This document shows positions 2,851 through 22,161 of a DNA stretch of 22,336 bases, piece by piece (the first letter of the stretch is position 1; every line of letters starts with the position of its first letter). The notes beneath the pieces are model-generated. The model had not been told where the DNA came from, did not search any database, and saw nothing but the letters and a program-made list of their open reading frames with translations. Source of the DNA: a virus; the IMG/VR virus record IMGVR_UViG_3300050821_003736, positions 1-22,336 of that record; one strand, given 5' to 3'. Both the position numbers and the translations under genes were made by a program.

Positions 2851-3429
2851 ATGGCAAATCGTTACGGCCCCAAGCGCACGCCGGAAGAGAAAGCGGCAGC
2901 TCATCGAGCCGCCAACCTGAAGTGGCGTTTGGCGCATCCGGAAAGGGCGCGCGAAAAATCACGGGCAGGACACGCCAAGTTTCGAGACAGAGAGCGCACT
3001 CAAGCGCGGGCGTGGCGCGCGGCGCACCCTGAACGAGTGCGCGAGAAAAACATCGAGTGGCGAGTCAAACACCCCGAATACGACGCGGCGTGGTGGCGCG
3101 CGCACCCAGAAAAACGTGTCGCTAAGACGGCGAGACGCCGCGCAGCAAAATACGCGCAACGCTGCAGCTGTTGTAGCGGCGCTCAGATTGAAGCGGTGTA
3201 TGCCGCACGTCGTGGTGGGGAAGTTGATCACATCGTCCCGTTGGTACTTGGCGGTCATCACTGCGTAAAAAATCTGCAGGCGTTGACTTACAGGGATCAT
3301 CGAGAAAAGACCAAGCAAGACCAGCGGGCCATCGCAGAAGCGAAACGCCGGTCGAAGCTACTACGCGGTTGGCCCGCACCTGACGGAGAACTCCCATTAC
3401 TGTTTTCAAATCGACTGATGGCCTTGTAG
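2851..3429 (+). CDS. HNH homing-type endonuclease (type C)
   Basis: The 192-residue protein has a basic N-terminal half with repeated blocks of the form W(R)xxHPExxxxK (residues 25-90). A Cys cluster follows (C105, C107, C108), then an HNH core: EVDHIVPL with D126-H127, and the Asn of VKNLQALT at N141. A strong GAGGAG lies seven bases before the ATG. HNH enzymes of this kind nick or cut DNA and can copy their own gene into empty alleles. The DNA is visibly less GC-rich than its neighbours, as expected for an acquired gene. Its last 34 bases overlap the likely start of the next structural gene. There is no room around it for a group I intron. Confidence 0.85.
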   Translation: MANRYGPKRTPEEKAAAHRAANLKWRLAHPERAREKSRAGHAKFRDRERTQARAWRAAHPERVREKNIEWRVKHPEYDAAWWRAHPEKRVAKTARRRAAKYAQRCSCCSGAQIEAVYAARRGGEVDHIVPLVLGGHHCVKNLQALTYRDHREKTKQDQRAIAEAKRRSKLLRGWPAPDGELPLLFSNRLMAL

Positions 3430-3857: not shown

Positions 3858-4066
3858 GCGACTTCGGCGTAACCGCCGAGCCCATCGGCAACTCACGCGT
3901 CCGCAAGGGCGCGCTCGCGCCGAAGAAGCGCGCCGGCATCGGCGCGCAACCACTCGATGGGACTACTAAGCGGAAGTCACACCTCCTTGGTAGTTTTAGA
4001 CATACTACCGAGAGCATGGGACAGCCGGCCGCGACTCCGCTTCTGAAAACGCGTAAACACGGCTGA
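3854..4066 (+). CDS. Hypothetical 70-aa basic protein
   Basis: The ATG overlaps the previous stop (ATGA at 3854) and the stop overlaps the next start (TGATG at 4064-4068). The product begins MSDFGVTAEPIGNSRVRKGA and ends TPLLKTRKHG. It is rich in Lys/Arg/Gly and probably flexible. The second half, close to the HNH gene, is richer in AT than the first, so its C-terminus may have been changed when that gene arrived. No family is recognised. Confidence 0.5.
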   Translation: MSDFGVTAEPIGNSRVRKGALAPKKRAGIGAQPLDGTTKRKSHLLGSFRHTTESMGQPAATPLLKTRKHG

Positions 4067-4446
4067 TGCCGTACAAAGACCATACATCCGACGCGGCGAA
4101 AGCATCCAAACGCGCGGCGGATCAGAAGTGGATTCTCGCGAACCCAGAAAAAGTTCGCGCAAAGAACCAAAGGCGTAAGAATTGGCGCCGCGCGAATCCA
4201 GAAAAAGAGAGCGCGAGTAGACGTAGAGCGTTACGGCAGCCGGAACCAACACGCCCCGAACCAACTCATTGCGAGTGCTGCGGGCGGTTACGTTCAGCGA
4301 AGAAAGCATTGTATTTGGATCACGATCACGTCACTGGACAGTTTCGTGGTTGGCTCTGCCATCAATGCAACACAGGTATCGGTATGCTCGGTGACGGGGC
4401 CGCCGGTTTGAAATGTGCGACAGATTATCTGAACAGAGTGTTTTAA
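4066..4446 (+). CDS. HNH endonuclease, endonuclease VII-like (type A)
   Basis: The 126-residue protein has a basic leader with ANPEKVRAKN and RRANPEKESA blocks, the linker PEPTRPEPT, a zinc-site pair C69xxC72 and C98xxC101, and the core ALYLDHDHVTGQFRGWLC with D85-H86-D87-H88. This is the signature of phage recombination endonuclease VII-type HNH proteins (zinc-bound beta-beta-alpha nuclease). As a free-standing gene in a structural operon it is best read as a homing endonuclease. It starts inside the stop of the previous gene and ends one base before the next ATG, where it leaves that gene without an obvious ribosome site. Confidence 0.88.
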   Translation: MPYKDHTSDAAKASKRAADQKWILANPEKVRAKNQRRKNWRRANPEKESASRRRALRQPEPTRPEPTHCECCGRLRSAKKALYLDHDHVTGQFRGWLCHQCNTGIGMLGDGAAGLKCATDYLNRVF

Positions 4447-10011: not shown

Positions 10012-10087
10012 TGGCCTGTAGCTCAGCTGGTAGAGCGGCACGCTGTTAACGTGCGGGTCCCTGGTTCGAGTCCAGGCGGGCCAGCCA
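10012..10087 (+). tRNA. tRNA-Asn (anticodon GTT)
   Basis: This is a full 76-base cloverleaf. The acceptor stem TGGCCTG/CGGGCCA contains one T-G pair, the D stem is GCTC/GAGC, and the anticodon stem GCACG/CGTGC carries loop CTGTTAA with anticodon GTT. The T stem is CCTGG/CCAGG with loop TTCGAGT. Discriminator G73 and an encoded CCA follow. It lies in the same direction as the structural genes, between two of them, only four bases after the previous stop, so it is probably excised from the operon transcript. It may supplement Asn decoding; neighbouring proteins are Asn-rich, but that link is inference. Confidence 0.95.
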
Positions 10088-10120: not shown

Positions 10121-10426
10121 ATGACGATTGAGTTCACACAGATCCCCATTAATGACATGGTCGTTGTGGAGATGATTCAAGAGCACGCCGCTAAGGGAAG
10201 AATTAAATTACCTGAGTGGCAAAAATATTTGCGCGGAATAGTTATCGCCGCCGGACCCGGCCGCGCTCTATATACAGGCGAGCGCGGGCCGATGCAATGT
10301 AAGGTGGGCGATGAAGTTTCGTTTGCTCCAACCGCCGGCATGGATATAGAATTTGGTCGCGTCGGAGCTAGTATTCGTATGATGCGGGACGGAGATGTTG
10401 ATTGTGTATGGGAGTCTGAAGCATGA
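10121..10426 (+). CDS. GroES-like co-chaperonin (first copy)
   Basis: The 101-residue length fits the cpn10 family. The product begins MTIEFTQIPINDMVVVEMIQ. The pattern GIVIAAGPGRALYTGERGPM, then CKVGDEVSFAP, then SIRMMRDGDVDCVWE follows the order of GroES: strand, GxG turn, extended loop, VGD strand, C-terminal strand. The mobile loop that would contact GroEL is probably at about residues 21-34 (EHAAKGRIKLPEWQ). Such phage proteins can replace host GroES and adapt GroEL to head-protein folding. The gene is visibly richer in AT than the terminase genes. Its stop overlaps the HNH gene that follows (ATGA). Confidence 0.75.
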   Translation: MTIEFTQIPINDMVVVEMIQEHAAKGRIKLPEWQKYLRGIVIAAGPGRALYTGERGPMQCKVGDEVSFAPTAGMDIEFGRVGASIRMMRDGDVDCVWESEA

Positions 10427-10743
10427 CTTCCCCACAGCTTCGTTACTACAGAAAAAACAGGGCTAAAATAAACGCGGCCAAACGCACGCCGGAATGGCGG
10501 GCTAGGAATAATGTCTATAAACGAAAATGGCGCGGGTACCCGGAACCGACTCACCCGTACCCCACGGCATGTGAAATTTGCGGTCAGGCAACGCAAAAAG
10601 CCCTGCATTTAGATCACGATCATATAACGGGCGCGTTTCGCGGTTGGCTCTGTGGCCCTTGCAATTTAGGGATCGGAAGTTTTAGAGACAACTCGGACTT
10701 GCTTGTGTCGGCGGCGCGGTACATTCGCGGGAGTCAGCTATGA
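10423..10743 (+). CDS. HNH endonuclease, endonuclease VII-like (type A)
   Basis: The 106-residue protein has a basic leader, the linker YPEPTHPYPT, zinc-site cysteines C50xxC53 and C77xxC80, and the core LHLDHDHITGAFRGWLC with D64-H65-D66-H67. It has the same architecture as the proteins at 4066 and 13598. GGGAG about eight bases upstream supports the ATG, which overlaps the previous stop. Its own stop overlaps the start of the second GroES-like gene. It therefore sits precisely between two related co-chaperonin genes. AT content is higher than in the genes downstream. A homing role is inferred from family and setting. Confidence 0.87.
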   Translation: MTSPQLRYYRKNRAKINAAKRTPEWRARNNVYKRKWRGYPEPTHPYPTACEICGQATQKALHLDHDHITGAFRGWLCGPCNLGIGSFRDNSDLLVSAARYIRGSQL

Positions 10744-11309
10744 GCGTCGCCCTCACGCCCCAGCTGCTTGAGTGCGCCGCGCGGACCAGGGTTCTGCGCG
10801 ACCGCGTCCTCGTGAAGCTGATCCCGTACGTGCACCCCGTGCTCGCGACCCCAGGGATCACCATCCAGAAAGGGGTCGTGATCGCCCCCGGCTACGGTCG
10901 CCGCGAGCGCCGCAAGGTAGAGTTCCGCCAAGGGATGAGCGAGGGCCAGGAGATCCGCTCCCCCGACGGGAAAGCGTTCAAGTTCGGCGCGACGCGTTCG
11001 AGCGGGAAGACGCTCTACTTCGAGGACGGACCGGAGACCGGCCGCATCCTGCCGCTGCAGGTGAAGACCGGAGATGTGATCGAGTTCGGCTTCCGCAACG
11101 TTGAGATCGTGGACTTCGACCGGCTCGCGGACTTCTATCACCTGCAGCTCGGGTCGTTGGTTTTCATCTGGCACGAGTCGATCTACTCCATCGACCCGGA
11201 AGATGACATGGAAAAGATCGCGAGCGCCGCGCTGCTCTTTCAGAAGAGCGCCGGCCATGACCGCCACGGCAACTTTATGAGCGGCGCAGAGGACTGGCAT
11301 CGCGCATGA
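10740..11309 (+). CDS. GroES-like co-chaperonin-related protein (second copy, extended)
   Basis: At 189 residues it is about twice GroES length. TRVLRDRVLVKLIPYV near residue 15 matches the opening strand of cpn10, and residues around 39-51 (GITIQKGVVIAPG) match the GIV...xxG strand. A long insertion (about 52-100, basic and Gly/Ser-rich) precedes LQVKTGDVIEFGFRNVEIVD and the closing SLVFIWHESIYSID. The C-terminal tail is unique. CGGGAG eight bases upstream supports the ATG. It is either a divergent co-chaperonin or a cpn10-fold protein with a different use. The pairing with the gene at 10121 is unusual. Confidence 0.6.
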   Translation: MSVALTPQLLECAARTRVLRDRVLVKLIPYVHPVLATPGITIQKGVVIAPGYGRRERRKVEFRQGMSEGQEIRSPDGKAFKFGATRSSGKTLYFEDGPETGRILPLQVKTGDVIEFGFRNVEIVDFDRLADFYHLQLGSLVFIWHESIYSIDPEDDMEKIASAALLFQKSAGHDRHGNFMSGAEDWHRA

Positions 11310-12148
11310 CGAAACCACGAAGCGGTAAGACCGCGTTTGCGCTGAGCGTGTGCGCCAGCGTGAAGGACAGCAAGCCGGACCTGTACAACGCGGTCCCGAC
11401 GCGCGCCGTTTCGTACGAGGAGGCGGTCTCCCACGGCTGGCCACACTTCTACGACGGCAAAAACGAGTGCTCGCAGGGCCACGTCGCCGCCCGGTACGTG
11501 TCAAACAAGGCCCGCTGCATCGATTGCGCGCGAATTGCCGACGGAAAGCTGCCGCTGTACACGAAACGGTCGAACGAGGACCTGATTTCGTCCGCGGTGA
11601 CCTCGCAAACGTACACCGACCCCCTCATCAACACTAATTTTAAGTGGGACGATGAGAAATTTCGCGTTTTTGGTGTCGCGTACGTCAATTCCGGCAGCGT
11701 TGAGAAGGCCCTGAGCCTCGTCGGCGCGACGCCGAACGATCTGATCACTGAATTACGCCGCGACGCGCAGCGACAGGCCCAGTACGAGGCCATCCGGCGC
11801 GACGTGGACCAAGTTTTCTTGTGGAAGGCCGAAGCAAGTGCCTCCACCGGCTCCGACCGCGCCATGTTGGCGCACGCCGGCGCTATTTCGCCCGACCGAT
11901 TCGGTTCGCGCACCAAGCAGGGCTTGGATACGCCGCCGTACGTGAACCCGGACAAGGCTTGTGCAGAACTTACCCAACTGCTATCAACAGCTCGCAGATC
12001 GCTTACTCAGAGAACAGCACTTGGATCAACTGGGGACGCTGGTGCAAGAGTGGAAAACACTCAGCCCGTCGAACCAAACCCAGCAGATCCAAAAGTGGAA
12101 GCACCTGTTCTACTGGGACAGCCACTCGACCATAGCGACTTGGTTTAG
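11306..12148 (+). CDS. Probable small terminase subunit with zinc-finger-like motif
   Basis: The gene lies directly upstream of the large terminase, the usual place for the DNA-recognition subunit, and overlaps the previous stop (ATGA). Residues 49-74 contain C55xxxH59 and C71xxC74 (KNECSQGHVAARYVSNKARC), a zinc-binding pattern that also occurs in the HNH protein at 21682. Residues 125-165 (VAYVNSGSVEKALSLVGATP) look like a helix-turn-helix as found in small terminases, followed by helices and DRFGSRTKQG. The Pro-rich C-terminal 60 residues overlap the start of the next gene by 188 bases. The terminase role is inferred mainly from order and the HTH; the zinc motif is not typical of the family. 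Confidence 0.55.
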   Translation: MTKPRSGKTAFALSVCASVKDSKPDLYNAVPTRAVSYEEAVSHGWPHFYDGKNECSQGHVAARYVSNKARCIDCARIADGKLPLYTKRSNEDLISSAVTSQTYTDPLINTNFKWDDEKFRVFGVAYVNSGSVEKALSLVGATPNDLITELRRDAQRQAQYEAIRRDVDQVFLWKAEASASTGSDRAMLAHAGAISPDRFGSRTKQGLDTPPYVNPDKACAELTQLLSTARRSLTQRTALGSTGDAGARVENTQPVEPNPADPKVEAPVLLGQPLDHSDLV

Positions 12149-12842
12149 CACGCCAGCCATTCGGGCGAAGTACCCGAAGCAGATGGCGCACTTCAAGGAC
12201 GGTGCGAGGTACGACGAGCGCGGGCTGTTCGGGGGCAACCGTACCGGCAAGACCCACTGCGGCGCGTACGAGGACACACTGCACCTGACGGGCCTGTACC
12301 CTGAGTGGTGGGAGGGCCGACGCTTCGACAGTCCCGTGGACTGGTGGGTCGCCACCGACACCGCGAAGAACACGCGCGACATCCTGCAGGAAAAGTTCTG
12401 CGGGAAGCCGGGCGTGCCGGCGCTCCTGGGCACCGGGATGGTGCCCATTGACCTCTTCGAGCGGGACCCGACCACCAAGCACGGCGTCGCGGACGCGTTC
12501 GAGTCGATCTTCGTGATCCACCACACCAACGGGGTCCAAGACGGAACCTCGACGCTTCAGTTCAAGTCCTACGACCAAGGACGCCAATCGTTCCAGGGAA
12601 CCCGGCAAGACGGAATCCACCTGGACGAGGAGCCGAAGTTGGAGATCTACACGGAGTGCTCGCTGCGTTTGATGGCGACCGGCGGCGAGGGCGACAAGAA
12701 CGGGTCACTGATTTTAACCGAGACGCCGCTGCTGGGCGTGTCGGAGCTGATGCTGATGTTCATGCCGGACCTGGCACCCTCGCCAGGGAACCCACTGCAG
12801 GACTTCGAGGTGGGGAGCGAGGAGATTGCAATCGATGAGTGA
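11961..12842 (+). CDS. Large terminase, ATPase part (split gene, N-terminal ORF)
   Basis: The 293-residue ORF begins with GTG 11961 and carries the packaging ATPase. Walker A is GGNRTGKT (91-98), Walker B with catalytic acid is GIHLDEEP (218-225, D222-E223), and a coupling segment is LILTETPLLG (250-259). It ends at TGA 12840-12842 just where the linker to the nuclease domain would begin. Large terminases normally have both domains in one chain of about 450-550 residues. The next ORF continues in the +1 frame with the nuclease. Either the phage makes two subunits, or a ribosomal frameshift or sequence error joins them. The first 188 bases overlap the small-terminase gene in another frame; no alternative start keeps enough of the N-terminal region. 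Confidence 0.85.
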   Translation: MQNLPNCYQQLADRLLREQHLDQLGTLVQEWKTLSPSNQTQQIQKWKHLFYWDSHSTIATWFSTPAIRAKYPKQMAHFKDGARYDERGLFGGNRTGKTHCGAYEDTLHLTGLYPEWWEGRRFDSPVDWWVATDTAKNTRDILQEKFCGKPGVPALLGTGMVPIDLFERDPTTKHGVADAFESIFVIHHTNGVQDGTSTLQFKSYDQGRQSFQGTRQDGIHLDEEPKLEIYTECSLRLMATGGEGDKNGSLILTETPLLGVSELMLMFMPDLAPSPGNPLQDFEVGSEEIAIDE

Positions 12843-13605
12843 CGAGATTCGCGAAGACCTTAGCCGCACCTCTCGCCTCCTCGACATGGACGACGTGCCG
12901 CACCTGTCGGACGCCGAGAAGCGGAAGATCCTGCGCGGTACCCCGGCCTACCAGCTCCAGGCGCGCAAGTCTGGGCTCCCCGGCCACGGCGTCGGCGCGA
13001 TCTACCCGATCCCGCTCGCCAACATGTTGGTGGACCCGTTCCTGATCCCCGGCCATTGGCCGGTGTGCGCCGCCATGGACCCAGGCTGGAACTGCACCGC
13101 GGTCGCGTGGTTCGCGTGGAACATGGACAAAGGCGGCGCGGTGATCTTTGACGAGTACTACATCGGGCAGCAGCACCCCGCCGTGCACGCCGCCGCGATC
13201 CGCGCTCGCGGGCACTGGATACCGATTGTGATCGACCCGGCCGCGCAGAAGGCGCGCGGCCACGACGGCGAGCGCCTGCTCGACGTCTACCGCGACCTCG
13301 GCCTGAACGTCATGGAGGCAGACAACACTGTCGTCTCCGGCATCATCGAGACGTGGAACTGGCTCTCGACCTCGCAGCTCAAGGTGTTCCGCACCTGCGT
13401 GAACTGGCAGAAAGAGGTGGGCCTGTACCGGCGCGACGAGAAGGGCGAGATCATCAAACGCAATGATCATCTTATGGATTGCACAAGGTACGGTGTTATG
13501 AGCGGCCGGTCGGTGGCTATTGTTCCGCCCGCGAGCGCAGGAGGTTTGCCATGGTTTACTTGGACCCCCGACCTAGCAACCCATGGAGGCGTTTGGAGTG
13601 GCTAA
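12835..13605 (+). CDS. Large terminase, nuclease part (split gene, C-terminal ORF)
   Basis: The ATG at 12835 overlaps the upstream stop by eight bases (ATGAGTGA), with AGGAG about 11 bases upstream; a TTG at 12826 is another possible start. The 256-residue product carries MDDVPHLSDAEKRK (18-31), typical of terminase sequence just before the nuclease. The RNase H-like nuclease acids lie in AAMDPGWN (D82), VIDPAA (D134) and NDHLMDCTRYG (D211/D215). It would cut the DNA concatemer at each packaging event. The last residues after about 225 are Pro/Gly/Trp-rich and run into the next HNH gene, so the C-terminus may have been modified. Confidence 0.83.
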   Translation: MSDEIREDLSRTSRLLDMDDVPHLSDAEKRKILRGTPAYQLQARKSGLPGHGVGAIYPIPLANMLVDPFLIPGHWPVCAAMDPGWNCTAVAWFAWNMDKGGAVIFDEYYIGQQHPAVHAAAIRARGHWIPIVIDPAAQKARGHDGERLLDVYRDLGLNVMEADNTVVSGIIETWNWLSTSQLKVFRTCVNWQKEVGLYRRDEKGEIIKRNDHLMDCTRYGVMSGRSVAIVPPASAGGLPWFTWTPDLATHGGVWSG

Positions 13606-13972
13606 GCGTACTAGGAAGCCGCTGACGCCCGCGCAGCGACAATTACAGCTAGCGGCACAGAAGAGATGGCGCGATAAAAATCGCGATAAGATCAGCGCGT
13701 ACGAGAAGCGACGCGCGGCCGAGATCCTCGGATACTACAAACTCCGGTCTCGCACCCGGAAGAGACTACCGACCCCGACACGCCCGGAACCCGCACTCTG
13801 CGAGTGTTGTGGGCGACCGCCAAACGGGCGGGGCGCCCTACATCTGGATCACGATCATATTCTCGGAACGTTTCGGGGATGGCTTTGCGCCAGCTGCAAT
13901 ATGGGGATCGGGAATTTAGGTGACAGCCTCATCGGCATCCAACGTGCCGCAGCCTATTTACAAAGAGGGTGA
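13598..13972 (+). CDS. HNH endonuclease, endonuclease VII-like (type A)
   Basis: GTG 13598 is preferred over ATG 13583 because GGAGG lies eight bases before it and nothing lies before the ATG. The 124-residue product has a basic leader, the linker PTPTRPEP, zinc cysteines C68xxC71 and C97xxC100, and core LHLDHDHILGTFRGWLC with D84-H85-D86-H87. It overlaps the last eight bases of the terminase nuclease ORF and covers the first 53 bases of the next gene. Terminase genes are frequent targets of homing elements, so this site is plausible. The function is inferred from family membership. Confidence 0.87.
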   Translation: MAKRTRKPLTPAQRQLQLAAQKRWRDKNRDKISAYEKRRAAEILGYYKLRSRTRKRLPTPTRPEPALCECCGRPPNGRGALHLDHDHILGTFRGWLCASCNMGIGNLGDSLIGIQRAAAYLQRG

Positions 13973-14187: not shown

Positions 14188-14685
14188 TTGAGTATTCAAC
14201 TACGCCTGACACATGAAGAGGGCCTGCGCCTCCGTCAGCAGACCGCGCACAAGATCGAGCGCACCAACAGCGACGGCAGCGGGTTCCCGTTGTCCGGCAC
14301 CGACTGGCGCTTCGACAAGTACCAGGACTCGACCGGCAAGACCTTCGAGGAAGTGCCACAGGACACGGACATGCGCCGCGTCGGCCCCGACGGCAAGCAC
14401 GAGAAGCTGGGCACGTACACGATCCATGTGACCTCCAACATGCGCAACCTCGTGGTCGAGCGCAAGGGCAAGGTCGCGCCGTTCAACTTCAAGAACCCCG
14501 CGATCCGCAACCAGATGCGCGTACGGTACCAGGAGCTGAAGCTCACCGGCCGCAAGACCAAGGACGGCAAAGAGATCCACGAGTGGAAGGACAGCGGGCA
14601 GCCCATCTACGTTCCGCCGAACACCTTCGGCGGCGTCTCGATTGGTGACGGCGTACGGGCGATATTGGACGAATGTCCGACATAG
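14188..14685 (+). CDS. Hypothetical protein with TTG start (165 aa)
   Basis: GGAGGGTGAG lies three to ten bases before TTG 14188, a clear ribosome site that sets this rare start. The product begins MSIQLRLTHEEGLRLRQQTA and mixes charged and beta-type segments (YTIHVTSNMRNLVVERKGKV). It ends GVRAILDECPT, overlapping the next ATG by 13 bases. No signal, membrane segment or catalytic motif is visible. It lies between terminase and portal, where some phages keep head-assembly accessory genes. Confidence 0.6.
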   Translation: MSIQLRLTHEEGLRLRQQTAHKIERTNSDGSGFPLSGTDWRFDKYQDSTGKTFEEVPQDTDMRRVGPDGKHEKLGTYTIHVTSNMRNLVVERKGKVAPFNFKNPAIRNQMRVRYQELKLTGRKTKDGKEIHEWKDSGQPIYVPPNTFGGVSIGDGVRAILDECPT

Positions 14686-15137
14686 AACGTCGCGCCGCGG
14701 ACGCGGCCCGCATCCATGCCTACTATCTTCGGGTAAAAGATACGCCGGAAGAGAAAGAGCGCCGTCGTCAAAAGGCGGCGCGGGAGCGGGCGGCTAATCG
14801 CGAGTTGTGTAACGAGCGCACCCGCGCTTGGCGCGCCAAGAACCCTAATCGCGGTTCGGAATATAGGCGTGCCAATTTAGGGCGGTACGCCGCTCACGCC
14901 ATGAAACGATACGCCGGATTAAAAACCGCGACGCCAGCATGGAGTGAGAACGTTTGTATTCTGGCGCTATATAACATAGCCGCCTCTCTCCGCGCATCAG
15001 GGGCGGACGTGCAGGTGGATCACGTCGTGCCGTTAAAGGGGAAGAACGTGTCAGGTTTGCATGTACGAAGTAATTTGCGAATCATCCCCAGCTCAGAGAA
15101 TCAACGCAAAAATAATCGGTTCGAGGTCGCGGCATGA
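14673..15137 (+). CDS. HNH endonuclease (type B)
   Basis: The 154-residue protein has a long Arg/Lys/Ala-rich helical leader with RAWRAKNPNRGSEYRRANLG (51-70). The core is VQVDHVVPLKGKNVSGLHV with D116-H117, then SNLRIIPSSENQRKNNRF with N134 and N143. This differs from the DHDH type and is close to the protein at 21682. It starts inside the previous gene and its stop overlaps the portal ATG (ATGA), so the portal ribosome site GAGG lies within it. AT content is higher than in the portal gene. It is most likely a free-standing homing endonuclease. Confidence 0.85.
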   Translation: MSDIERRAADAARIHAYYLRVKDTPEEKERRRQKAARERAANRELCNERTRAWRAKNPNRGSEYRRANLGRYAAHAMKRYAGLKTATPAWSENVCILALYNIAASLRASGADVQVDHVVPLKGKNVSGLHVRSNLRIIPSSENQRKNNRFEVAA

Positions 15138-17620
15138 GTTCGAACGCTTCCGACAATTGGGACCTGATCAGTTTGGTGCCCGGCGACACCGGGCCCCTCC
15201 CCAATCACCCAGGGTTCGAGATTGAGGATGAAGGCGCGCTCATGTCGCGCATTCGGAACTTCTACGATGAGGGTGCGGGCGCGTGGGAAGAGAACCGCCG
15301 CATGCACTCCGAAGACCTGAACTTCATCTACAACAGCGAGGCGATGGGTCAGTGGGACCCGGTCGTCCTCCAGAACCGTCGCGGCAAGCCCTGCTACACG
15401 TTCAACCGGTGCATCGGGCCGGTGAACATCGTTGTGGCCGACATGCGCCAGACGCGCCCGAACGGCAAGGTGCGCCCGGCCAGCGACGGCGCCAGCGAGC
15501 CCGTCGCCGACATCTTCGGCGGCCTGTGCCGCTCGATTGAGCAAGCCTCTCGCGCGGACCAGATCTACAAGGAGCAGTACAAGTTCGCGGTGGCCGGCGG
15601 CTTCGGCGCGTGGCGCATCATGCCCACGTACATGGCCGACGACGGCGACGGCGCCTTCGATCAGGTGATCCGCCTCATCAACATCGCGAACCCGCAGACG
15701 GTCGTGTGGGATCCGCAGTGCGCGGACGCCTGCGCCGGCGACGCCAACCGCTGCGTCATCGCGGAACGCATCTCTGACGAGGTGTACCAGGCGATCTACA
15801 AGGACGAGAACGGCGTCAGCTTCACGATGTCGCGCGACAGCTACGGCTGGTTCACCGACAAGGAAGTTCGCGTAGCGGAGTACTTCGAGCGCGTGCCGCG
15901 CGAGAAGAAGATCTGCCAGATGACCGACGGAACGGTCCGCGACTACGACTCGGAGATGAGGGCCAACGAGGCCCACTTCGAGGAGCACGGAATAACCGCC
16001 GCCGAGCACGGCGTGGTCCGCATCGCCAAGTACAAGGACGGCCGCAAGAAGATCCGCCCGACCATCAAGTGGCAGGTCATGTGGTGCAAGGTGGACGGCT
16101 CGAACGTCCTCGAAGGCCCGTACTACTACGACTGGAAGCGCATCCCCGTGGTCCGCTGCCCCGGCCGCTACATCAACATCGAGGGCCGGAAGAAGTTCCA
16201 GGGCCTCATCCGTCACGCGAAGGACCCCCAGCGCAGCTACAACAGCCGCGCATCGGACATGATCGAGCGAAGCGCTCTCATCCCGAAGGCCCCGTACCTC
16301 GTGACACAGACAATGATCAAGGGCTTCGAGTCGGAGTGGAACCAAGCCAACGTCCAGTCCCGTCCGTACTTGCCCTACAACCCGGACCCGAAGGCCGAAG
16401 GCTCGAACGGCATGCCGCACCGGATGGATCCCATCGACCTGCCGCAGGGCGCCATCGCGCTCGCGCAGATGTCGATTGAGGACATCAAGGCCACCATCGG
16501 CATGTTCGACGCCTCGGTCGGCAACGCGGACGAGATGAACCGCGTCTCCGGCAAGGCGCTCGTGCAGCACAACAAGCGCTCGGACTTGGGCAGCTTCGAG
16601 TTTGTCGATGGCTACCAGTCAGCCCTGCAGCTGACGTGGGAGATGTTCATCGACATGATCCCGACCGTCATGGACTCCGAGCGCGTCGAGCGCATCATCG
16701 GCCACGACGGCGTGGAGAAGATGGTCACCGTCAACGGCGCGCAGGACGGCACCGAGGACCTGATCAACGACCTGAGCAAGGGCTCGTACGACGTCCAGGT
16801 GAACATCGGCTCCAGCTACCAGTCCGCGCGCCAAGAGGCGCTGGACGTTCTGATCGGCTTCGCCGAGGCGATGCCGGAGTCCGCGGCGGTCATCGCTGAC
16901 CTGATCGCGAAGAACATCGACACCCCGGACGCGCAGGAAATGGTGCGCCGGCTGCGCAAGCCGCTCATCTCTCAGGGCCTCGTCCAACCGACCGACCAGG
17001 AGAAGCAGGAGGGCGCCGGGCAGCCGACACCAGCGCAGCAGGCCCAGCAGGCCATGCAGCAGCTGGAGCAGCAGATTATGAAGGGCAAGGCGGACAAGAT
17101 GACCGCGGACGCCACCATCGCGCAGTCGAAGGCCCAGTCGAGTCCGGCGGAGCAAGAGAAGCTGAAGCTCGGCAACATGAAGTTGGCGAGCGAGGTCCAC
17201 GACAACGCACTCGGCCACGCCGGTATCCCCGATCAGGGCGAGCAGGCGTCCGCTCAGCTCGAACTGCAGCACCAGGGTAACCTGAACCAGCAGGAGCTAC
17301 AGCACAACGAGGCCACGCACCGCCAGGGGCTCACGCACGAGCACGGCGAGCACATCGCCGGCGTCCTGAAGGGCCGCTCGGAGCATGAGGCCGACGTGGG
17401 CCGTGACTTCAGCGAGCACGCGAAGGAAGAGCAGCGCCTGCAAGAGAAGCACGCCCGTGAAGAGGCCCGCAAGCACGAGGCCCATCGGGCCGAGATGACG
17501 CGTATGGCCGAGAAGCACGACGCGGAGCTGGCGCACGCCGGCAAACTGAATGACGCTAAGGTCGCCGCCGCGAAGGCGATGGCCAAGGCAAAACCGAAGG
17601 CAGCCAAAAAGGCCGCCTGA
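15134..17620 (+). CDS. P22-like portal protein
   Basis: In this 828-residue protein the N-terminal 480 residues show the P22 gp1-type portal pattern: a charged opening (RIRNFYDEGAGAWEENRRMH), RRGKPCYTFNRCIGPVNIVV, VADMRQTRPNGKVRP, and GGFGAWRIMP. In the capsid, twelve copies form the ring through which DNA is pumped and to which the tail attaches. Residues from about 620 onwards are Gln/Glu/His/Ala-rich with heptad-like regularity, ending in a Lys/Ala-rich tail (KAMAKAKPKAAKKAA). This fits an extended helical barrel as in P22, though this one is unusually rich in histidine. P22 portal is 725 residues, so it is longer. Its ATG overlaps the HNH stop. Confidence 0.92.
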   Translation: MSSNASDNWDLISLVPGDTGPLPNHPGFEIEDEGALMSRIRNFYDEGAGAWEENRRMHSEDLNFIYNSEAMGQWDPVVLQNRRGKPCYTFNRCIGPVNIVVADMRQTRPNGKVRPASDGASEPVADIFGGLCRSIEQASRADQIYKEQYKFAVAGGFGAWRIMPTYMADDGDGAFDQVIRLINIANPQTVVWDPQCADACAGDANRCVIAERISDEVYQAIYKDENGVSFTMSRDSYGWFTDKEVRVAEYFERVPREKKICQMTDGTVRDYDSEMRANEAHFEEHGITAAEHGVVRIAKYKDGRKKIRPTIKWQVMWCKVDGSNVLEGPYYYDWKRIPVVRCPGRYINIEGRKKFQGLIRHAKDPQRSYNSRASDMIERSALIPKAPYLVTQTMIKGFESEWNQANVQSRPYLPYNPDPKAEGSNGMPHRMDPIDLPQGAIALAQMSIEDIKATIGMFDASVGNADEMNRVSGKALVQHNKRSDLGSFEFVDGYQSALQLTWEMFIDMIPTVMDSERVERIIGHDGVEKMVTVNGAQDGTEDLINDLSKGSYDVQVNIGSSYQSARQEALDVLIGFAEAMPESAAVIADLIAKNIDTPDAQEMVRRLRKPLISQGLVQPTDQEKQEGAGQPTPAQQAQQAMQQLEQQIMKGKADKMTADATIAQSKAQSSPAEQEKLKLGNMKLASEVHDNALGHAGIPDQGEQASAQLELQHQGNLNQQELQHNEATHRQGLTHEHGEHIAGVLKGRSEHEADVGRDFSEHAKEEQRLQEKHAREEARKHEAHRAEMTRMAEKHDAELAHAGKLNDAKVAAAKAMAKAKPKAAKKAA

Positions 17621-21241: not shown

Positions 21242-21685
21242 GTGGCACCTACCAGTCAGACCAACCAGCAGATCATCACTGAGCCGTTCATCAAGCTCGG
21301 GCTCGTCGCCGAAGGACACCAGCCGTCCGCGACGCAAAGCGCCCAGGGACTTACGATCCTGAACGACAACATGCTCACGCAGATGATGGACGGCTGGCGG
21401 GACATCGGCTGGTACCCACAGACCACCGCGAACCTCACCACGCCCGCGCCCCTGCAGGACTCGGACGTTGCCGACATCAAGCTCGCGCTCGCGGCGTGGA
21501 TCGCTCCGCATTACGGGAAGACCGTCGATCCGCCGACGAGCCCGGCCGACAAGTCCTCCCTCGGCGCTCAGGTCGAGGCCGCCTTCACGCGGCTCGACAA
21601 GCGCTATCTCCGTCGCACGGAGGCTGACCTTGGTGAGCTGTCGCGCCCCCAGGGAGGGCCCTGGGGTGGGCCGAACTGGCTATGA
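21242..21685 (+). CDS. P22 gp4-like head-completion (tail accessory) protein
   Basis: GTG 21242 is preferred over ATG 21215 because GAGG lies seven bases upstream and the ATG is inside a hairpin. The 147-residue product has QQIITEPFIKLGLVAEGHQP, then TQSAQGLTILNDNMLTQMMD and a helix-turn pattern ADIKLALAAWIAPHYG. These match the helical gp4-type adaptor family that binds the portal after packaging. It would seal the filled head and recruit the gp10-like protein. Its stop overlaps the HNH gene (ATGA). P22 gp4 is 166 residues, close in size. Confidence 0.78.
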   Translation: MAPTSQTNQQIITEPFIKLGLVAEGHQPSATQSAQGLTILNDNMLTQMMDGWRDIGWYPQTTANLTTPAPLQDSDVADIKLALAAWIAPHYGKTVDPPTSPADKSSLGAQVEAAFTRLDKRYLRRTEADLGELSRPQGGPWGGPNWL

Positions 21686-22161
21686 TATTGATTTCATTGA
21701 AGTTTTCTGGAAAACCCTGCAAGCGGGGGCACGACGGAACCAGATGGAAATCGAACGGCGACTGCGTCGAGTGCGGGTACGCGCGTCGTCGCGCGCACCC
21801 GGAGTATGATCGTACCGCGGACGCGAAACGCCGCGGCACCGAGAAGCGTCGGGCGCAGAAGCGCGCGGCAGAGAACGCGCGCCGCAAACTTCCGCACGCC
21901 CAAGCCGCGCGCGCCGCCGAGCGCATGAAACGCATCGCCGACCAGAGGCAGCGCACTCCGGCCTGGGCCGACCACGAAAAGATCCGAGCCTTCTACCGGC
22001 TCGCGGCCGCGTTCAGTAAGCTGTACGTGCCGCATCACGTAGATCACATTGTGCCACTGAACGGAGAGCACGTTTCCGGTATTCACGTGGAGCACAACCT
22101 GCGGGTCATCCCGGCTTCGGATAACTTGCGCAAGGGCGCGGGGTTCTTGGAGGCGGCGTAG
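21682..22161 (+). CDS. HNH endonuclease (type B) with zinc-finger-like N-terminus
   Basis: The 159-residue protein begins with a zinc motif, C13xxxH17 and C28xxC31 (SGKPCKRGHDGTRWKSNGDC), matching the motif in the small-terminase gene at 11306. A long Arg/Lys/Ala-rich helix follows, then the core HVDHIVPLNGEHVSGIHV with D121-H122, and HNLRVIPASDNLRKGAGF with N139. The core is close to the protein at 14673. The ATG overlaps the gp4-like stop and the TAG overlaps the next GTG (TAGTG). It sits exactly between two head-completion genes. A homing role is inferred from family and setting. Confidence 0.86.
   Translation: MILISLKFSGKPCKRGHDGTRWKSNGDCVECGYARRRAHPEYDRTADAKRRGTEKRRAQKRAAENARRKLPHAQAARAAERMKRIADQRQRTPAWADHEKIRAFYRLAAAFSKLYVPHHVDHIVPLNGEHVSGIHVEHNLRVIPASDNLRKGAGFLEAA

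What the first reader, a model, noticed from the sequence alone, without database searches (positions are those of the whole stretch)
12780..12900. Large terminase split into ATPase and nuclease ORFs with an ATGAGTGA overlap
Walker A and B motifs end in ORF 11961-12842, and the nuclease acids lie in ORF 12835-13605, in the +1 frame. The second ORF has its own ATG and an AGGAG upstream inside the first. A genuine two-subunit motor, a programmed +1 frameshift and a sequence error are all possible. The natural-looking ribosome site favours two proteins.
Basis: partly seen in the sequence, partly recalled or inferred. Interest (0 to 1): 0.7.

Follow-up and report, generated by a model that had tools for sequence, protein, structure and literature searches.

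The report
Viral DNA-packaging motor in two genes
In this virus of bacteria the large motor protein that packs DNA into the virus shell is made as two separate proteins, an engine and a DNA cutter, and dozens of related viruses share the split, some with a selfish endonuclease gene sitting exactly at the break.

Summary
ORF 11961-12842 is a Terminase_6N ATPase; ORF 12835-13605 is a P22-type terminase nuclease (best solved match 4dkw), in the +1 frame with an ATGAGTGA overlap. Of 105 distinct related loci that hold both parts, 91 are split and 14 fused. Among 57 distinct insert-free junctions the nuclease lies in all three frames relative to the ATPase ORF (37/15/5), at offsets from -34 to +55, so neither a sequencing error nor a programmed frameshift explains it. 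Shine-Dalgarno matches of 5 or more bases precede 30/57 nuclease starts against 1.5% of internal start codons. Both ORFs are under purifying selection. Long contigs and one circular genome show no second terminase of these families. At the junction 14 loci carry an insert; in 13 it encodes a free-standing endonuclease (Endo VII, HNH or GIY-YIG type). The inserts come and go between near-identical phages. No intron was found and there is no room for a split intein. A single origin of the split is rejected (AU p 4e-10; 4e-5 with fused L206 allowed inside). This is a 'genes-in-pieces' TerL; that a homing endonuclease caused the fission is inferred, not shown.

The parts
11961..12842 (+). Terminase ATPase subunit (TerL-N), 293 aa, GTG start; Walker A 12231-12254, Walker B 12615-12635, motif III 12714-12737, acidic C-terminal tail
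   Evidence: PF03237 E 1.1e-9; phrog_31467 E 5e-45, phrog_2; alignment of 21 homologues
12835..13605 (+). Terminase nuclease subunit (TerL-C), 256 aa, own ATG; acidic motifs at 13075-13089, 13228-13245, 13462-13479; conserved C-terminal ...VWSG arm
   Evidence: PF17289, just under cutoff; phrog_5653 E 1e-21; 4dkw E 4e-28; AF2 model, top hit P22 terminase nuclease
12835..12842 (+). ATGAGTGA start/stop overlap, suggesting translational coupling
   Evidence: 25 of 57 distinct insert-free junctions have exactly this offset
12820..12824 (+). AGGAG ribosome-binding site for the nuclease ORF, inside the codons of the ATPase acidic tail, 10-nt spacer
   Evidence: SD enrichment over relatives
11306..12148 (+). 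Upstream ORF in the small-terminase position, overlapping the ATPase ORF by 188 nt; overlap length conserved in close relatives
   Evidence: overlap about 184 aligned nt in L002, L003, L009, L121, L125, L127; identity as TerS is by position only
13583..13972 (+). Endonuclease VII-type gene directly after the nuclease ORF; absent at this place in the nearest relatives L002 and L003
   Evidence: (PF02945 E 1e-15)
14188..14685 (+). Conserved ORF of unknown function between nuclease and portal in all split relatives checked
14673..15137 (+). HNH-like endonuclease gene between ORF 14188-14685 and the portal; matched at the same place in L005 (70% identity), not in L002 or L003
   Evidence: no HNH Pfam hit
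15134..17620 (+). P22-type portal protein
   Evidence: PF16510 E 4e-146

Best explanation
The large terminase of this P22-like phage is permanently encoded as two separate, probably translationally coupled cistrons: an ATPase protein and an RNase H-fold nuclease protein. They are inferred to assemble non-covalently into the working packaging motor. The break lies in the flexible linker between the two domains, so each product is a complete domain. The junction is a favoured landing place of free-standing homing-type endonuclease genes, which enter and leave it repeatedly. The most likely origin is insertion of such a gene into the linker of an ancestral fused terL; when the endonuclease gene is lost, the ATPase stop codon and the nuclease start codon and ribosome site remain, leaving directly adjacent or overlapping genes as in this window. 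Shown by sequence: a conserved split, variable frame, ribosome sites, purifying selection, endonuclease presence and absence, no second terminase of these families in the records searched, more than one origin. Inferred: assembly in trans, packaging function, and the endonuclease as the cause of the fission.
For: 91 of 105 distinct loci with both parts are split, 14 of them with a large insert. Over 57 distinct insert-free junctions the frame of the nuclease relative to the ATPase ORF is +1 in 37, +2 in 15, 0 in 5, and start offsets run from -34 to +55. SD matches of 5 or more bases at 30/57 nuclease starts versus 31/2008 internal start codons. dN/dS for window/L003 is 0.15 (ATPase) and 0.16 (nuclease); for window/L002 0.12 and 0.21. 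Inserts: Endo VII (PF02945 E 1e-13 to 4e-15), HNH/Endo VII-like PHROGs (phrog_1035 E about 1e-17), T5orf172 GIY-YIG in L210 (E 6e-5), and an HNH remnant in circular MW202785 (phrog_99 E 5e-5). L012 and L014, identical around the junction, differ by deletion of most of the HNH gene; L063/L053 likewise. On the tree the insert label needs 12 changes, 11 of them forced by starred branches. The split as one clade is rejected: AU p 4e-10 with all fused rows outside, 4e-5 with the fused L206 allowed inside. Rfam finds no intron. Split records searched, including contigs of 40-61 kb and circular MW202785, hold one ATPase part and one nuclease part only. The C-terminal arm is conserved; in phage D6E the corresponding arm reaches the ATPase active site (PMC5727402), so docking in trans is plausible.
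Against: No proteomic, biochemical or packaging data. Nearly all loci are metagenome contigs, and assembly errors cannot be excluded for any single one. The endonuclease genes could be later colonists of a junction already split by ordinary mutation; in the large clade the extant inserts sit at a boundary that is already split. The ATPase structure model was poor (pLDDT 51), so the cut could not be mapped on a fold, and no complex was modelled. The SD control does not correct for the GAG-rich acidic tail.
Confidence: 0.82

Rival explanations
1. Programmed +1 (or -2) ribosomal frameshifting joins the two ORFs into one TerL.
For: The two ORFs overlap by a few bases in the +1 frame in the window and in many relatives.
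Against: Relative frame varies (37/15/5 over +1/+2/0), five distinct junctions are in the same frame behind a stop codon, offsets reach +55, and 14 loci have about 450-1320 nt between the parts. The second ORF has its own start and SD.
Confidence: 0.03
2. Sequencing or assembly error breaks one intact terL.
For: Window and relatives are metagenome assemblies; a one-base indel would look like this.
Against: The nearest relatives (L002, L003, about 80% aa identity) have the same 7-base offset; dozens of independent contigs are split, at many offsets and with inserted genes; each nuclease has a start and usually an SD.
Confidence: 0.01
3. The gene was split by ordinary mutation (new stop plus internal start in the linker), and homing endonuclease genes colonised the new cistron boundary later. 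(Rival only on the origin of the split, not on the two-protein reading.)
For: Endonuclease genes in these phages also sit at other cistron boundaries (nuclease/ORF 14188, ORF 14188/portal), and in the large clade each insert-bearing locus has insert-free split sisters.
Against: In the second, independent split group three of the four members carry an insert or an endonuclease remnant at the junction (one of these inserts, L208, has no recognised domain), as expected if insertion made the split; precedents nrdA/mobE and topoisomerase/mobA (PMC2988022).
Confidence: 0.4
4. The halves are rejoined after transcription or translation (group I/II intron splicing or split-intein trans-splicing), as known for other terL genes.
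For: terL introns in ICP1 (PMC10448857) and Jug phages (PMC12363816); two inteins in cyanophage Mic1 TerL (PMC7156551).
Against: In the window the ORFs overlap by 8 nt, leaving no room for an intron or for intein halves; only 16 residues precede the conserved DMDDVPHL of the nuclease. No Rfam intron in the window or 14 related loci.
Confidence: 0.01
5. The split terminase is a decaying gene and another terminase does the packaging.
For: The window is a fragment of unknown completeness.
Against: dN/dS of both parts is far below 1; all catalytic motifs are kept; split records, including long contigs and one circular genome, hold no other match to phrog_2, Terminase_6N or the nuclease profile.
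Confidence: 0.03

Closest known systems
Phage P22/Sf6-type large terminase (gp2; Terminase_6N + Terminase_6C), e.g. P22 nuclease domain 4dkw and D6E TerL 5oe8
   Same: Same ATPase and nuclease families, same order TerS-position ORF, TerL, portal; P22-type portal and coat protein in the window
   Different: P22 and D6E TerL are single polypeptides with a linker; here two proteins
Genes-in-pieces created by homing endonucleases: Aeromonas phage Aeh1 nrdA (mobE), T4 topoisomerase (mobA), phage 25 DNA polymerase 43A/43B (PMC2988022, citing Friedrich 2007)
   Same: An essential phage enzyme divided into two polypeptides with a free-standing endonuclease gene at the break
   Different: Different enzyme (packaging motor); family-wide, with endonucleases of several classes and repeated loss; activity of the pieces not tested here
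Intron-interrupted terL in ICP1 (PMC10448857) and Jug phages (PMC12363816); intein-bearing Mic1 TerL (PMC7156551)
   Same: terL as a target of mobile elements
   Different: Those are rejoined by splicing; here no intron or intein is present and the proteins stay separate
GenBank MW202785 (Podoviridae sp. ct2G2228), two adjacent CDS both named 'large terminase protein'
   Same: An already deposited circular genome with the same kind of split, belonging to the independent second split group
   Different: HNH remnant between the parts
PHROG families phrog_31467 (ATPase part only, function unknown) and phrog_5653 (nuclease part only)
   Same: Existing protein families that match one part each
   Different: Not linked to each other as one split enzyme in the library

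Membership tests
P22-type large terminase (TerL) | ATPase domain with Walker A, Walker B plus catalytic acid, and motif III | tested here: met
   PF03237 E 1.1e-9; GGNRTGKT, IHLDEEP, LTETPLLG largely invariant in 21 homologues
P22-type large terminase (TerL) | RNase H-fold nuclease with three acidic positions | tested here: met
   4dkw E 4e-28, Foldseek rank 1; D82, D134, D211/D215 invariant; PF17289 itself is 1.2 bits under its cutoff
P22-type large terminase (TerL) | Both domains in one polypeptide | tested here: not met
   Two ORFs in different frames here; split in 91 of 105 loci
P22-type large terminase (TerL) | Gene next to the portal in the packaging module | tested here: met
P22-type large terminase (TerL) | ATP-driven DNA packaging and headful cutting | not testable with these tools
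   Needs biochemistry
Genes-in-pieces by homing endonuclease | Enzyme divided into two complementary ORFs, fused in relatives | tested here: met
Genes-in-pieces by homing endonuclease | Free-standing endonuclease gene at the break | tested here: met
   Met for the family (13 loci with Endo VII, HNH or GIY-YIG inserts, one remnant); not present between the parts in the window itself, where an Endo VII gene follows the nuclease
Genes-in-pieces by homing endonuclease | The endonuclease cuts the uninserted allele and moves | not testable with these tools
   Presence/absence between near-identical phages only
Genes-in-pieces by homing endonuclease | The pieces assemble into an active enzyme | not testable with these tools
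   Conserved C-terminal arm and low dN/dS are indirect support only
Programmed ribosomal frameshift | Conserved shift frame and overlap with no independent start for the second ORF | tested here: not met
   Frames 37/15/5; SD and start codon present
Spliced terL (intron or split intein) | Recognisable intron or intein halves at the junction | tested here: not met
   8-nt overlap, no Rfam intron; intein models were not run on the junction, the argument is lack of space

The most novel reading that the evidence does not exclude
A widespread lineage of P22-like phages uses a two-protein packaging motor in which the nuclease is not covalently tethered to the ATPase, so that the nuclease can join, leave or be present in different copy number from the ATPase ring; the fission arose independently at least twice through homing endonucleases, and may have been reversed once (L206).
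Probability: 0.35. Interest if true: 0.8.

Novelty: new variant of a known kind. Interest (0 to 1): 0.6.

Why it matters
Models of viral DNA packaging (T4, Sf6, D6E) involve movement between ATPase and nuclease domains joined by a linker. A natural motor in which that link is cut in most members of a family offers a direct test of whether the covalent link is needed for translocation, and of how cutting is timed. It also shows an essential gene, often used as a phylogenetic marker, being repeatedly opened by selfish endonucleases. Annotation tools that look for one full-length TerL will miss or half-call it: PHROGs keeps the ATPase part as 'unknown function'.

Tried and rejected
Sequence error: rejected by conservation in relatives. 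Programmed frameshift: rejected by variable frame and inserted genes. Intron splicing: Rfam search of the window and 14 related loci gave tRNAs only. Split intein: no room at the junction; no intein model was run. Second terminase in the same record: not found with phrog_2, Terminase_6N or the nuclease profile. ATPase structure prediction gave pLDDT 51 and was not used; the ATPase profile found no PDB relative by sequence. Re-fusion in L206: the tree places it inside the split clade, but the AU test does not reject a split clade without it (p 0.34), so left open. The 1.3 kb insert of L208 had no Pfam or PHROG match in the two ORFs tested. Literature: the searches of the open-access library found no description of a TerL kept as two polypeptides; many subscription papers are not held. 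From memory only, actinophage annotation lists contain separate 'large subunit, ATPase domain' and 'nuclease domain' names, so split TerLs may be known informally; one search for this found nothing.

Full report
Observation. The window is one linear IMG/VR record of 22,336 bases. ORF 11961-12842 (GTG start, 293 aa) matches Terminase_6N (E 1.1e-9) and carries Walker A, Walker B and motif III. ORF 12835-13605 (ATG start, 256 aa) matches terminase nuclease PHROGs (E 1e-21) and, as a family profile, the solved P22 terminase nuclease domain 4dkw (E 4e-28). Its AlphaFold2 model (mean pLDDT 77) has that domain as first Foldseek match. The ORFs overlap by ATGAGTGA, the second in the +1 frame, with AGGAG ten bases before its ATG. 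Portal and coat protein downstream are of P22 type.

The split is conserved. Searches of viral contigs with each part returned about 80 distinct loci holding both parts; a profile search reached more distant ones. Of 105 distinct loci holding both parts, 77 are split, 14 are split with a large insert, and 14 are fused. The two nearest relatives, L002 and L003 (78-84% amino-acid identity), have the same 7-base offset between start and stop. Elsewhere the junction varies. Over 57 distinct insert-free junctions the offset runs from -34 to +55 and the relative frame is +1 in 37, +2 in 15 and 0 behind a stop codon in 5. A programmed shift would need a conserved frame, and a sequencing error would not be shared, so both are set aside.

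Both ORFs look translated and selected. Shine-Dalgarno matches of at least five bases lie 4-12 nt before 30 of 57 nuclease starts, against 31 of 2008 internal start codons; with at least four bases, 46 of 57 against 11%. Part of this could come from the GAG-rich codons of the acidic tail, which the control does not correct for. dN/dS is 0.15 and 0.16 (window/L003) and 0.12 and 0.21 (window/L002) for ATPase and nuclease. In the split records searched, including contigs of 40-61 kb and the circular 40 kb genome MW202785, there is one ATPase match and one nuclease match and no other terminase of these families. Completeness of the contigs is not stated, and terminases of other families were not searched for.

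Endonuclease genes at the junction. Thirteen of the fourteen inserts encode an endonuclease-like protein: Endonuclease VII type (for example L005, L028, L047, L061, L080, L128, L159), an HNH or Endo VII-like type with weak Pfam but clear PHROG matches (L012, L033, L041, L063, L150), and a T5orf172 GIY-YIG type (L210). Not every insert was scanned with a profile: L028, L047, L063, L150 and L159 were read as ORFs and assigned by evident similarity to scanned ones, and L041 by the like size and place of its insert and its near-identity to L033. L208 has 1.3 kb without a known domain. MW202785, whose two parts are both annotated 'large terminase protein', has between them a 46-aa ORF matching a C-terminal stretch of an HNH family (phrog_99, E 5e-5). 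L012 and L014, from different metagenomes and identical around the junction, differ by loss of most of the HNH gene in L014, with both of its ends left; L063 and L053 show the same. On the tree the insert label needs 12 changes for 12 rows, 11 of them forced by starred branches. This is the pattern of elements that come and go. In the L005 type of junction the endonuclease gene starts at the ATPase stop and ends at the nuclease start, so the three cistrons are chained.

The gene neighbourhood is otherwise steady: ORF 10740-type, small-terminase-position ORF, ATPase, nuclease, ORF 14188-type, portal. Endonuclease genes also sit at the nuclease/14188 and 14188/portal boundaries in some phages, among them the window (13583-13972 and 14673-15137), but not in L002 or L003. 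This keeps open the rival that endonucleases colonise any cistron boundary, including one that was split by ordinary mutation.

Evolution. In trees of the joined parts the fused forms are basal, and the split forms make a large clade with the window and a separate small group (L145, L208, L209, with or beside L210). Holding all split rows together is rejected (AU p 4e-10; p 4e-5 if the fused L206 is let in), so the split arose more than once under this model; long branches are a caution. L206, fused, falls within the large split clade, which would mean a re-fusion, but a split clade without it is not rejected (p 0.34). In the small group three of four members carry an insert or an endonuclease remnant, which is the best support for the endonuclease as the cause of the fission. 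I put that at roughly 55-60%.

How it would work. Fused relatives have a variable linker of roughly 15-30 residues between motif III plus the following helix and the TWDD-type start of the nuclease; the cut lies in that linker, so each product is a whole domain. The nuclease C-terminus (PWFxWxP...VWSG) is conserved in the large split clade and its fused sisters. [quoted passage not shown] From this I infer that the pieces dock in trans; no tool here could test a complex.

Known or new. Enzymes in pieces through homing endonucleases are known for T4-like nrdA, topoisomerase and DNA polymerase, with activity shown for some (PMC2988022). Homing endonuclease genes near terminase genes, a spliced terL in ICP1 (PMC10448857) and in Jug phages (PMC12363816), and inteins in TerL (PMC7156551) are known. 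I found no description in the open library of a TerL kept as two proteins through a phage family, though the library lacks most subscription papers and at least one split entry already exists unremarked in GenBank. I rate it a new variant of a known kind.

Noticed in passing
window 2851-3429, 4066-4446, 10423-10743, 13583-13972, 14673-15137, 21682-22161: Six small endonuclease-type genes in 22 kb (three with Endo VII Pfam hits, the others HNH or HNH-like, one without an HNH Pfam hit); several lie at cistron boundaries, and those at 13583 and 14673 are absent from the closest relatives at the same place.
   Followed up: partly
window 11306-12148 with 11961-12842: The ORF in the small-terminase position overlaps the ATPase ORF by 188 nt; the aligned overlap is about 184 nt in L002, L003, L009, L121, L125 and L127, an unusually long and steady gene overlap.
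   Followed up: partly
window 11411-11540 (N-terminal part of ORF 11306-12148): The small-terminase-position ORF has near its N-terminus a CxxGH...RY...CxxC stretch like the N-termini of the endonuclease genes in the inserts and matches small PHROGs 1081 and 23777; possibly a zinc ribbon shared with an endonuclease gene.
   Followed up: no
L206 2251-3729 (same in L207): A fused terL lying inside the split clade in the tree, whose linker reads ...SGSKVAIMVSWEDVPHL like the MSKVAVMVSWEDVPHL start of split nucleases; possible re-fusion, not proven.
   Followed up: partly
L208 1713-2932: A 1.3 kb insert between the terminase parts with no Pfam or PHROG match in the two ORFs tested.
   Followed up: partly
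window 10012-10087: tRNA-Asn (GTT) gene within the structural region.
   Followed up: no
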